Both the position numbers and the translations under genes were made by a program. Source: Planctomycetaceae bacterium (GTDB lineage: Bacteria > Planctomycetota > Planctomycetia > Planctomycetales > Planctomycetaceae). From it: DNA of 64,000 bases. The stretch is taken from positions 1 to 64,000 of the forward strand of contig JAKFWA010000086.1 of assembly GCA_021732995.1 (NCBI GenBank), in the 5' to 3' direction. Under the pieces are notes generated by a model, which had not been told where the DNA came from, did not search any database, and saw only the letters and a program-made list of their open reading frames with translations. Positions 48,485-52,855 of the stretch are shown in pieces. Positions within the stretch are counted from its first letter, which is position 1, and every line of letters starts with the position of its first letter.

Positions 48485-49054
48485 GATAGTCTTTCTCCAA
48501 GGGAGACTCGTGCCATCGATCGAACGCACTTTGCATTGGTAATCCGACACTGAATCTACGCAGCAGACGAAAGCTACATGCCGCTTTGCATGTCCCGAAG
48601 TCTAATGATGGCGAATAATTCCCCGGCTCGGAGTAATCTTTCATCGCACGCCGCAACCGGCTGTCTTGCCCGCATTTTACCATGGAGGCATAGCGGACCA
48701 CTTTGCCACGTCAACGTCCTCTGGATGTGTGCGGGGGGCCTCGGTAGCCCCAACACGGGCGACCAGCGCCACCTGCGAAATGGATCTGCTGCGCATAAGT
48801 TCGTAGAACAAGTCCACCAACGCGGGATGTAGTGCCGCGAGTCCGTCAAATGATCGTTTCCTTCGCGGCTTAGCGCCTTCGCGTGAGTTATCTGGAGTGG
48901 TCTCACGCGAAGGCGCGGAGTCGCGAAGAATGGAGTGAAGCCGCCGACGTGCTGCTAGTAAATCTCGATTGTTGGTGTGTTATTGCTGGGCGGTCCCGTG
49001 TACCGCTGGCTGTTGATTGACGCCAACCCCAGCACGCGTCGGTTGAATCGCTTG
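48485..49054. other. Gene-poor 570-bp region with repeat copy
   Basis: No supportable gene. Several frames are open but have no RBS or family signature. The right half contains the palindromic repeat at 48850-48929. Confidence 0.5.
48850..48929. repeat. Dispersed palindromic repeat, copy 1
   Basis: Arms CTTCGCGGCTTAGCGCCTTC and the near-complementary GAAGGCGCGGAGTCGCGAAG surround GCGTGA/TCACGC and a short variable loop. A second copy in the same orientation lies at 51713-51792 with nearly the same arms and a different loop. The minus-strand translation (HAKALSRE) is the usual mis-ORF of such repeats. Confidence 0.85.
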
Positions 49055-49480
49055 TCAGGCTATCGCGCTCCAGCGCTCGACAATTTGATTGAAGAGTGAA
49101 TCGACTTCTTCCCAAGGTTCATTTGCTGAAGAATACACCACAGACAACGCACAGTATTGATTGGGGAAGGGAGCGATCGCGTGCATGTTGGCGATCGCTT
49201 GGGGCAGGGACAGGCCGGTTCCACGGATAGACTGAGCTGCCACAGCCAGCACCAGATCCTTGAGTGGATGCTCGAAATGAGCGTCGACTTGCTGAAGTAA
49301 GGCGAGCCGCGTTTCCGGCGTCACCGTCGCGCTGGCTGGAACTCGAACAAGTTCGTCGACCACCATGAATGCCGCATTGGGCGAGATCGAGCAACCACGC
49401 GCGATCAATCGTTCCGCTTCCGCGCTATCGTGGTACGGAAAACGGCAGTCGATCAGAGAGATGAAGTCGGATTCAGTCAT
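49055..49480 (-). CDS. Hypothetical protein
   Basis: 141 residues from ATG 49478-49480. Soluble, acidic, mostly helical (ESDFISLIDCRFPYHDSAEA, then NAAFMVVDELVRVP and PLKDLVLAVAAQSIRG). No motif recognised. Its lone position next to the reverse-transcriptase cassette and between two copies of a repeat is compatible with an accessory or immunity-like role, but nothing in the sequence shows this. Codon use looks native and the reading frame is well filled, so it is probably real. Confidence 0.6.
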   Translation of the reverse strand: MTESDFISLIDCRFPYHDSAEAERLIARGCSISPNAAFMVVDELVRVPASATVTPETRLALLQQVDAHFEHPLKDLVLAVAAQSIRGTGLSLPQAIANMHAIAPFPNQYCALSVVYSSANEPWEEVDSLFNQIVERWSAIA

Positions 49481-49646
49481 GGGCGAGATCTTACGCAATG
49501 ACCACCAGCTGCGCAAACCGGGGAACGAGAGCCAGATATTGCAGCCTCAATGCGCCTGCCGAGTTAGCTACGGAAAGCCAAACGGCACCGAGTGGTGCTG
49601 TGGTTCACCGACTTTTGAGCTTCTTGTCGCCCAATGGGGAATGGTT

Positions 49647-50726
49647 TTATTCGTGCGATGGGCCTTCAAGGCCACTGCGGCTAACGTCCTCTTGGACTCC
49701 TTCGCAGCCTTTCTTCTGGACATCGTAAGTTTCTTCCGGGCGATTGTCCGGTTTGCGAACTTCCTCAAGAGTCTTCTTGCGCTCGATCAGTCCATTTTTC
49801 TTGGCAAGCTGACTTACACGCATCCACGGAATAGAGCGAAATCTTCGATATAGCGCGCGGAATCTTCCCGGGTTTATCCAGCGAACAAAATGAATGCGTC
49901 CAAGAATCTGTTGTGGGGTGTAATAAGGCCCGTCAAATACTTCGTTATTAATCAGATTCGCCACGTCGGATAGCTGGCGATCCAGCTCATCCGCGTACTG
50001 TTTTGTTATGTCGAGGTGGTCGTCTTTAATGCGAACATTTGTAATGGATGCCTGCTCCATACTTGAGAAGTAGAACTTGTCTGGATTTGCCCTAAAGCCA
50101 TTCTCTCTCAGAACTCGGCAAAGAGTGCCTGCGAATCCGCTGTCGCGGATGTCAAATGTGCCGGATATCGTAATGTCATCCACGAAACGCGTGTACTTGA
50201 GGGACGCCGATTCGCACACTGCAGCCAATCTGCGGTCCACTGGGCGCAGAATCTGATCGGCAAGAATGGGGCTACTGACGAGCCCTAGTGCTAAATGGTT
50301 GTTGTATGTGCAAAGGCGCGTGCAAATTCGACTTACGTCGGGGCTACATTCGAAGTTGTTGGCGAATAGTCTATAAACTCGCGAATGGTGGATTGACGGA
50401 TAGAAGTTGGAAATATCAGCTTTGAAGATGAAGGCTGATCCTCGATGCGCCTCTGCATTAGTTTTGATGCTGCGACCCTTGATTCCGCCGTGGCTGAACT
50501 CGGTGGGTACGAGTTTGGGCAATAACACTCGTTTGTAGAGCCTGCTTTGTAGAGTTCTGAGTTCGCCACAAACGCTAATAACTTCACGAAGTTTATTAGG
50601 TCTTGCGGGATCGTGCAGGATATACGTCTTGTAATACTGCTTCGTGTTGCTGAGCACCTTTTCTAGTGCATCGACTGACGTATCGAGGGCGCGCAGTAAG
50701 TGTTTTGTTTGCCTGATTCTGATCAT
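49647..50726 (-). CDS. Retron-like reverse transcriptase
   Basis: 359 residues. The retron region-X signature NAxxH is present as NAEAH (90-94), directly before the first catalytic Asp104 in FKADISNFYPSI. Motif 4 reads GLVSSPILADQIL, without the usual Gln before Gly. The active-site box is FVDD (181-184) instead of YxDD, with both Asp retained. Region Y, normally VTG, reads ITN (228-230). A thumb-like ILGRIHFVRWINPGRF follows, then a basic tail. The N-terminal half has the usual RT helices and GIKGRSIKTN. ATG 50724-50726. It is the last gene of a three-gene set, 19 bp after the HTH gene. Likely function: copying an associated RNA into DNA as part of a phage-defence retron, by analogy; a related non-retron defence RT is the alternative. 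Confidence 0.88.
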   Translation of the reverse strand: MIRIRQTKHLLRALDTSVDALEKVLSNTKQYYKTYILHDPARPNKLREVISVCGELRTLQSRLYKRVLLPKLVPTEFSHGGIKGRSIKTNAEAHRGSAFIFKADISNFYPSIHHSRVYRLFANNFECSPDVSRICTRLCTYNNHLALGLVSSPILADQILRPVDRRLAAVCESASLKYTRFVDDITISGTFDIRDSGFAGTLCRVLRENGFRANPDKFYFSSMEQASITNVRIKDDHLDITKQYADELDRQLSDVANLINNEVFDGPYYTPQQILGRIHFVRWINPGRFRALYRRFRSIPWMRVSQLAKKNGLIERKKTLEEVRKPDNRPEETYDVQKKGCEGVQEDVSRSGLEGPSHE

Positions 50727-50745: not shown

Positions 50746-51060
50746 CTAACCGTCTCGTTCGGAGTGTTCTCTAATCAGGTGTTCGATACGGATGCGCCAA
50801 GCAGAGGATAACGAGGCTGCGGCTTGACGTACATTCGGAGGAAGCTTGTCTATGCTTCCATCGTTGCACCATGCAAGCACGTAGAGGTCAATTCCCCATA
50901 ATTGCCTATATCTGTCAAGTAATTCGCGAGACGGTTGCTTCTTGTTGTTCTCAATGTTGCACAAGTGGGCGTAGGTGACATCGAGTTTTTCCGCGGTTTT
51001 TCGTTGAGTCCATCCCAGCCTTTCGCGTAGCTCCTTTGCTAAGGTGCCGATACTGATCAT
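50746..51060 (-). CDS. Cro/C1-type helix-turn-helix protein
   Basis: 104 residues. An XRE-like HTH occupies about residues 5-60: LAKELRERLGWTQRKTAEKL, then DVTYAHLCNIENNKKQPSRE. The C-terminal 40 residues are helical and charged. ATG 51058-51060 has GAGG about 9 bases upstream. It lies between the small acidic protein and the reverse transcriptase, all in one direction with short gaps. It could be the cassette's repressor or the effector of a retron of the HTH-associated type. I infer this from context only. Confidence 0.85.
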   Translation of the reverse strand: MISIGTLAKELRERLGWTQRKTAEKLDVTYAHLCNIENNKKQPSRELLDRYRQLWGIDLYVLAWCNDGSIDKLPPNVRQAAASLSSAWRIRIEHLIREHSERDG

Positions 51061-51096: not shown

Positions 51097-51351
51097 TTAC
51101 AGCTCTTCAATACCCGCCATTTTACGAAGTGCACGAGCAGTTAAGGACTCTGCCTGATCAATATCAGGCGGATCCTCTGCGAGACTTCGTTCGGCGAGGT
51201 AGTACAAGTGCTCTAAGACCTCCCATGAAGTTGAGCCGGGGCTTTTGCCATGCAAGAGAGCTCGCCAAAAAAAATGTAGATTGGCGATTCTCTCGTTATC
51301 TGATGGCGGCTCGTCCGACGACTCCTCGTGATTGAAACGATTATTAATCAT
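51097..51351 (-). CDS. Small acidic protein, first gene of RT cassette
   Basis: 84 residues, with many Glu/Asp in the first 20 and helical sequence after (HFFWRALLHGKSPGSTSWEV, then LEHLYYLAERSLAEDPPDID). No family recognised. ATG 51349-51351 has AGGAG 7 bases upstream, a strong ribosome site, so translation is likely. The stop is 36 bp before the HTH start. It is the first coding gene after the structured region 51405-51676 and might be a toxin, antitoxin or cofactor of the reverse-transcriptase system; none of this is shown by motif. Confidence 0.7.
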   Translation of the reverse strand: MINNRFNHEESSDEPPSDNERIANLHFFWRALLHGKSPGSTSWEVLEHLYYLAERSLAEDPPDIDQAESLTARALRKMAGIEEL

Positions 51352-51404
51352 TTCATACTCCTACTAGGTTCAACCTGATTTTGGAAACCACCATGGTTCC
51401 CGAT

Positions 51405-51676
51405 TCCACTGACGCTGCACGCACGAAGTGCGTGCCGCGGCAGACCACTCCCAGCCAGCCAGCCAGGCCAGCAGGAGCGGGGTTTAAGGCGGCATCGATT
51501 GATGCCGTTTCAGGCCCAAAGTTGGCAATCCACAAAAATGGGTTACCAAATTGAGCAGCCCACGAGTGTGGGTGAGCGGAGTAGCGAGTTGCTGGCCGCG
51601 TTATCCTCGCGGACAACAACCCCGTCAAGCCGATCGAGTGGCGAATTCCACGTTTTAATGGTCGACGTTCAGTGAA
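51405..51676 (-). ncRNA. Candidate structured RNA (possible retron msr-msd)
   Basis: Reading the minus strand, hairpins follow in close order: CCGCG/CGCGG, CCCAC/GTGGG, an 11-bp TTGGTAACCCA/TGGATTGCCAA with one mismatch, CGGCATC-aatc-GATGCCG, and GCACGCAC-ttc-GTGCGTGC. The ends TTCACTGAACG (51666-51676) and CGTCAGTGGA (51405-51414) can pair, 10 bp with one bulge, like the a1/a2 stem of a retron RNA. It lies just upstream of the three-gene reverse-transcriptase set and on the same strand. A 138-codon frame crosses the region but lacks RBS and family signs. Confidence 0.5.
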
Positions 51677-51712
51677 GTTGGCTCGCCGCGCGGAGCATCT
51701 TGAGTTGCTCAG

Positions 51713-51792
51713 ATGGTTGTTTTCTTCGCGGCTTTGCGCCTTCGCGTGAGCTGGTTTGATTGATTTCACGCGAAGGCGCGGAGTCGCGAAGA
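51713..51792. repeat. Dispersed palindromic repeat, copy 2
   Basis: Same repeat as 48850-48929: arms CTTCGCGGCTTTGCGCCTTC and GAAGGCGCGGAGTCGCGAAG, loop differing. Together the two copies bracket the hypothetical gene, the reverse-transcriptase cassette and the structured RNA. Confidence 0.85.
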
Positions 51793-52664: not shown

Positions 52665-52782
52665 GGTGGGTCGCGCTAAGAGGTCCACCGTCCTACCGTG
52701 CTACAGGGGTGGGTCTTGCGGCCCACCCTACGGACCCCCTCTTCCGGCCTGCGGCCTCCTTCTCCCCCTTGTGAAGGGGGAG
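52664..52782. repeat. Cluster of dispersed inverted repeats
   Basis: After the pirin stop, GTAGGGTGGG pairs with CCCACCCTAC ~60 bases later, enclosing GGTGGG-tcttgcgg-CCCACC, followed by CTCCCCCTT-gtg-AAGGGGGAG at 52762-52782. No gene is seen in the 191-bp gap. Such units may also act as terminators, but there is no T-run. Confidence 0.6.
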
Positions 52783-52855
52783 AGCCACCTGGGCCTGCGG
52801 CTCTTTGCTAACAGGTAAACGCTAACCCCTCGCCTTCGATCAGAAAGGTTTTGTC

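What the first reader, a model, noticed from the sequence alone, without database searches (positions are those of the whole stretch)
51405..51676. Dense hairpin region as candidate msr-msd RNA
Within ~270 nt there are at least five strong stems (for example an 8-bp GCACGCAC and a 7-bp CGGCATC hairpin), and the two ends can pair over ten bases with a bulge, as in retron RNAs. It is directly upstream of the RT cassette, on the same strand. A CTGG tandem repeat between the hairpins is also unusual. The end pairing alone could be chance.
Basis: partly seen in the sequence, partly recalled or inferred. Interest (0 to 1): 0.75.

Follow-up and report, generated by a model that had tools for sequence, protein, structure and literature searches.

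The report
Type VI retron leader RNA
The dense hairpins are the front end of a reverse-transcriptase (retron, type VI) operon in a planctomycete bacterium: most likely the retron's template RNA, whose two ends pair across the ribosome-binding site of a small protein gene next to it, a layout that suggests the RNA also switches that protein on and off.

Summary
The hairpins are real. The 242-nt leader is the most stable minus-strand stretch of its length tested in the window (z -5.7). It heads a minus-strand operon: sigma70-like promoter (-35 51628-51623, -10 51605-51600), structured leader (about 51593-51352), a conserved 84-aa ORF, an HTH gene and an RT. The RT and HTH best match the PADLOC type VI retron models (1.6e-60; 1.7e-14). 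Across 16 related loci (window included; planctomycetes and one viral contig), 14 have the promoter at the matching place, and most leaders share a hairpin/(C)CUGAAA/hairpin core, with compensatory changes counted in 9. In 14 leaders the 5' end pairs with its own 3' end better than with those of other loci (1/20000; 0/20000 permutations), and that 3' arm holds the small ORF's Shine-Dalgarno site. This is the a1/a2 arrangement of a retron ncRNA. In this window alone the corrected a1/a2 pairing is also no better than chance; its support comes from the family. msDNA was not shown. Most likely: a new type VI retron whose a1/a2 stem hides the start of the small ORF.

The parts
51600..51628 (-). sigma70-type promoter: -35 TTGACG (51628-51623), 17-nt spacer, -10 GATAAC (51605-51600)
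   Evidence: score >=9 at the matching distance in 14 of 16 loci versus 8% of shuffled regions
51352..51593 (-). structured leader, candidate msr-msd ncRNA, also the 5' UTR of the operon
   Evidence: z -5.7, lower energy than 527 tiles; start inferred from the promoter
51578..51587 (-). a1 arm (TCGCTACTCC), followed by candidate priming G at 51577
   Evidence: MFE pairing with 51361-51353; family permutation tests; weak in this sequence alone
51514..51572 (-). msr-like hairpins 1 and 2 (CCCAC/GUGGG and the UUUGGUAACCCA... stem)
   Evidence: predicted fold
51508..51515 (-). conserved linker GCCTGAAA
   Evidence: GCCTGAA(A/G) in 8 of 14 leaders, related variants in others
51490..51507 (-). hairpin C (CGGCATC-AATC-GATGCCG)
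   Evidence: pair 1 CG/AU, pair 4 CG/UA, pair 5 AU/GC, pair 6 three types; own arms better than swapped arms, 3/20000 permutations (arms chosen by hand)
51383..51480 (-). presumed msd template: CTGG-repeat hairpin (51446-51480), GCACGCAC hairpin (51417-51435), GGAACC hairpin (51383-51400)
   Evidence: predicted fold; role inferred from position between hairpin C and a2
51353..51361 (-). a2 arm GGAGTATGA, contains the Shine-Dalgarno site of the small ORF
51097..51351 (-). small ORF, 84 aa, conserved three-helix protein
   Evidence: homologues in the same place in related loci; AlphaFold2 pLDDT 83
50746..51060 (-). HTH (XRE/HTH_3) protein
   Evidence: PADLOC HTH_VI 1.7e-14, Pfam HTH_3
49647..50726 (-). 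retron-type reverse transcriptase, 359 aa, NAEAH and FVDD motifs
   Evidence: PADLOC RT_VI 1.6e-60; RVT_1

Best explanation
This is a type VI retron. One transcript carries the ncRNA leader, a small ORF, an HTH regulator and the RT. Inferred: the leader folds with its 5' end (a1) paired to its 3' end (a2); the RT would prime from the G just after a1 and copy the hairpins between hairpin C and a2 into msDNA. Because a2 contains the Shine-Dalgarno site of the small ORF, the folded or RT-bound RNA should keep the small protein (candidate effector) low; disturbing the RNA, RT or msDNA, for example during phage infection, would free the site and start its translation. The HTH probably represses the promoter. 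Shown by computation: gene order, family matches, promoter, RNA structure, family-wide a1/a2 pairing over the SD. Not shown: msDNA, translational control, toxicity, defence.
For: RT_VI (1.6e-60; next best model 8e-48) and HTH_VI are the best PADLOC hits. A paper citing Mestre 2020 describes type VI retrons as RT + DNA-binding protein + small auxiliary protein (PMC8541194). HTH lies next to RT in many distant loci, and the small ORF is in the same place in the planctomycete set. Promoter in 14/16 loci versus 8% expected. Leader mean z -4.1 over 13 loci. Hairpin C compensatory changes. Own a1/a2 beats cross-paired arms: 1/20000 by energy, 0/20000 by helix length. SD pairing 0.88 versus 0.71 for GGAGG elsewhere in the same loci, p 5e-5; the SD pairs with the first 50 nt at 0.78 or more in 11 of 14 loci.
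Against: In this window alone the a1/a2 helix (6 bp ungapped) is no better than 17-37% of random stretches. Two loci of 14 (L073, L172) do not pair the SD with the 5' end, and L165 only at 0.45. Other type VI loci do not as a group show an occluded SD. No Rfam match. No msDNA data. The small protein has no known relative or informative fold match, so calling it an effector is a guess.
Confidence: 0.7

Rival explanations
1. The leader is only a cis-acting translation-control 5' UTR, bound by RT or HTH protein, and is not reverse transcribed.
For: SD occlusion is a well-supported feature of the 3' end; msDNA is not shown.
Against: A retron-type RT with NAxxH motif is encoded on the same transcript, and the 5'/3' end pairing with a G near the end of a1 and msr-like hairpins matches retron ncRNA anatomy.
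Confidence: 0.2
2. An ordinary retron whose a2 happens to lie at the SD because the ORF follows closely; no regulatory meaning.
For: In retron Eco1 a2 (AAGGGTGCGCA) also ends 6 nt before the RT start codon.
Against: Here a strong SD lies in a2 in most loci and is more paired than the HTH and RT start sites in the same operons (0.88 versus 0.61/0.62).
Confidence: 0.35
3. The 138-codon frame (51353-51769) is a protein gene and the hairpins are coincidental.
For: The frame is open.
Against: No homologue at the related loci, no significant family match; it runs through the promoter and a repeat palindrome.
Confidence: 0.01

Closest known systems
Type VI retron (Mestre 2020 classification; PADLOC RT_VI/HTH_VI)
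   Same: RT, HTH protein and small auxiliary ORF in one operon; RT and HTH best match the type VI models
   Different: The planctomycete small protein has no detectable match to any searched family; the SD inside a 5'/3' end-pairing arm was established only for this set among the type VI loci examined here
Retron Eco1 (Ec86, type II-A)
   Same: ncRNA with 5'/3' arms a1/a2, a G after a1, msr hairpins, and an ORF starting just after a2
   Different: In Eco1 the ORF after a2 is the RT, with a weaker SD-like AAGG; here it is a small ORF with a strong SD inside a2
DRT2 (ncRNA-templated de novo gene)
   Same: RT operon with a structured neighbouring ncRNA
   Different: This RT best matches retron models; a DRT2-like template for a repetitive gene was not looked for

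Membership tests
Retron | Retron-type RT with NAxxH, YADD-like and VTG-like motifs (motifs named in PMC12405507) | tested here: met
   NAEAH; FVDD in place of YADD; ITN in place of VTG (ITG in two relatives); retron models lead all PADLOC hits
Retron | Structured ncRNA next to the RT with complementary ends a1/a2 | tested here: met
   Family-level permutation tests; the window sequence alone is inconclusive
Retron | Conserved priming guanosine immediately after a1 (PMC11754653) | tested here: inconclusive
   A G follows or lies close to a1 in the leaders by eye; position not tested statistically
Retron | 2'-5' branched msDNA is made | not testable with these tools
   Needs expression and sequencing
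Retron type VI | RT of the type VI clade | tested here: met
   RT_VI best hit, 202.8 bits versus 161 for the next model; no tree built
Retron type VI | Associated DNA-binding (HTH) gene | tested here: met
   HTH_VI 1.7e-14 and adjacent in the operon
Retron type VI | Small auxiliary protein gene | tested here: met
   Conserved 84-aa ORF between leader and HTH; definition taken from PMC8541194
Rfam RNA families | Match at gathering score | tested here: not met

The most novel reading that the evidence does not exclude
A retron ncRNA that doubles as a translational switch: the a1/a2 helix used to start reverse transcription also hides the ribosome-binding site of the effector gene, so loss or damage of the RT-ncRNA-msDNA complex directly turns on translation of a small effector.
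Probability: 0.35. Interest if true: 0.75.

Novelty: new member of a known kind. Interest (0 to 1): 0.5.

Why it matters
In studied retrons the effector is a protein held in check by the RT-RNA-DNA complex (PMC12548924, PMC11754653). If the type VI small protein is instead controlled at translation by the ncRNA ends themselves, it gives a direct and easily tested link between reverse transcription and effector release. The held library has no description of a type VI ncRNA that I could find, and the related loci supply ready comparison sequences.

Tried and rejected
The 138-codon protein frame: no homologues. Rfam: nothing credible. HTH_VI as a genome-search probe: far too general, 292 of 392 genomes. 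MAFFT alignment of leaders with RNAalifold: too divergent, almost no consensus structure, so hairpin C and a1/a2 were tested by swapping arms between loci instead; hairpin C arms were picked by hand from nine loci where the hairpin is clear. Local hairpin B is only weakly supported (mean z -0.9). SD occlusion as a rule for all type VI loci: rejected (mean 0.56), although five Burkholderiales/gammaproteobacterial loci reach 0.75-0.87. Fold search of the small protein: no match better than E 1.9. L074 and L170 gave no clear promoter. A clean empty site in the one other genome of the genus was not found.

Full report
WHAT IS THERE. All parts are on the minus strand. Reading from high to low coordinates: promoter (51628-51600), structured leader (about 51593-51352), an 84-aa ORF (51351-51097), an HTH gene (51060-50746) and an RT gene (50726-49647). 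The RT's best PADLOC model is RT_VI (1.6e-60, 202.8 bits; next RT_III-A 161 bits) and the HTH's is HTH_VI (1.7e-14). The 84-aa ORF matches no family above threshold.

THE OBSERVATION. Both named hairpins and the CTGG run are present. The minus strand folds much better than shuffles (z -5.4; plus strand -3.7). The promoter-defined 242-nt leader (z -5.7) has a lower energy than all 527 same-length minus-strand tiles of the window.

RELATIVES. Searches with the RT gave 16 related loci including the window, from planctomycetes and one viral contig. The HTH precedes the RT in all 16, and the small ORF was found by profile in most; in L073 and L075 the profile match is not significant and in L149 the small ORF start was set by hand at an SD, so these three rest on position. 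HTH-RT pairs also occur in many more distant loci, where in a good number other small ORFs of about 65-90 aa sit upstream of the HTH.

PROMOTER. A TTGAC(N)/TATAAT-like promoter lies 244-311 nt upstream of the small ORF in 14 of 16 loci; 8% of shuffled regions reach the same score. Several loci carry a palindrome TTAAA-N7/8-TTTAA over the -10 region (sequences), a plausible operator for the HTH protein (inference).

RNA STRUCTURE. Leaders of 13 loci average z -4.1. Most share a core: hairpin, (U)UGCC, hairpin, (C)CUGAAA, hairpin C. Hairpin C, over nine loci with hand-picked arms, shows CG/AU, GC/AU, CG/UA and AU/GC exchanges, and own arms pair better than swapped arms (3/20000). Pairing of the first 50 nt with the last 36 nt of the same leader is stronger than with those of other loci (mean -24.7 versus -20.0 kcal/mol; 1/20000 permutations); the longest ungapped helix averages 9.0 versus 7.1 (0/20000). 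Swapping keeps the common CUCC/GGAG complementarity, so the excess is locus-specific. The window itself is among the weaker cases: its a1/a2 helix has 6 ungapped pairs and is no better than 17-37% of random stretches. I therefore rest the a1/a2 claim on the family, not on this sequence.

THE SD IN A2. The 3' arm contains the SD of the small ORF. SD pairing probability averages 0.88, against 0.61 and 0.62 for the HTH and RT starts and 0.71 for GGAGG/AGGAG elsewhere in the same loci (p 5e-5). In 11 of 14 loci the SD pairs with the first 50 nt at 0.78 or more; controls with the leader shuffled average 0.14-0.42. L073, L172 and in part L165 are exceptions. The feature is not general to type VI loci elsewhere (mean 0.56).

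INTERPRETATION. The anatomy is that of a retron ncRNA: paired ends, a G at or near the end of a1, msr-like hairpins, then a structured stretch (about 51490-51370) that would be the msd template. The position of the priming G was judged by eye. For comparison, in retron Eco1 a2 ends 6 nt before the RT start, so an ORF starting right behind a2 is not new; a strong SD inside a2 in front of a small ORF is what stands out here. The mechanism proposed (folded or RT-bound RNA keeps the small protein off; disturbance frees it) is inference.

SMALL PROTEIN. AlphaFold2 gives a three-helix bundle (pLDDT 83). Foldseek finds no significant PDB match (best E 1.9). Effector is the likely role by analogy with other retrons but untested.

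LIMITS. No expression or msDNA data; type VI literature is mostly outside the held library (Mestre 2020 not held); the description of type VI comes from a citing paper. No tree of the RT was built. Start codons were chosen by SD score and some by hand.

Noticed in passing
48839-48929 and 51702-51792: Two direct copies (82% identical, 91 nt) of a palindromic CTTCGCG...CGCGAAG repeat flank the segment holding the retron and one further ORF; shorter related copies are scattered over the genome.
   Followed up: partly
49055-49516: A 153-aa ORF downstream of the RT on the same strand, between the flanking repeats, without Pfam, NCBIfam or PADLOC match; link to the retron untested.
   Followed up: partly
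51600-51628 and the same place in related loci: Palindrome TTAAA-N7/8-TTTAA over the -10 region in several relatives, possible HTH operator; degenerate in the window.
   Followed up: partly
L116, L128, L130, L136, L143 leaders: Burkholderiales/gammaproteobacterial type VI loci also have a well-paired small-ORF SD (0.75-0.87), in several apparently through a nearer CUCCUU stretch.
   Followed up: no
52728-52794: A separate repeat of about 50 nt with some 20 copies in the genome.
   Followed up: no
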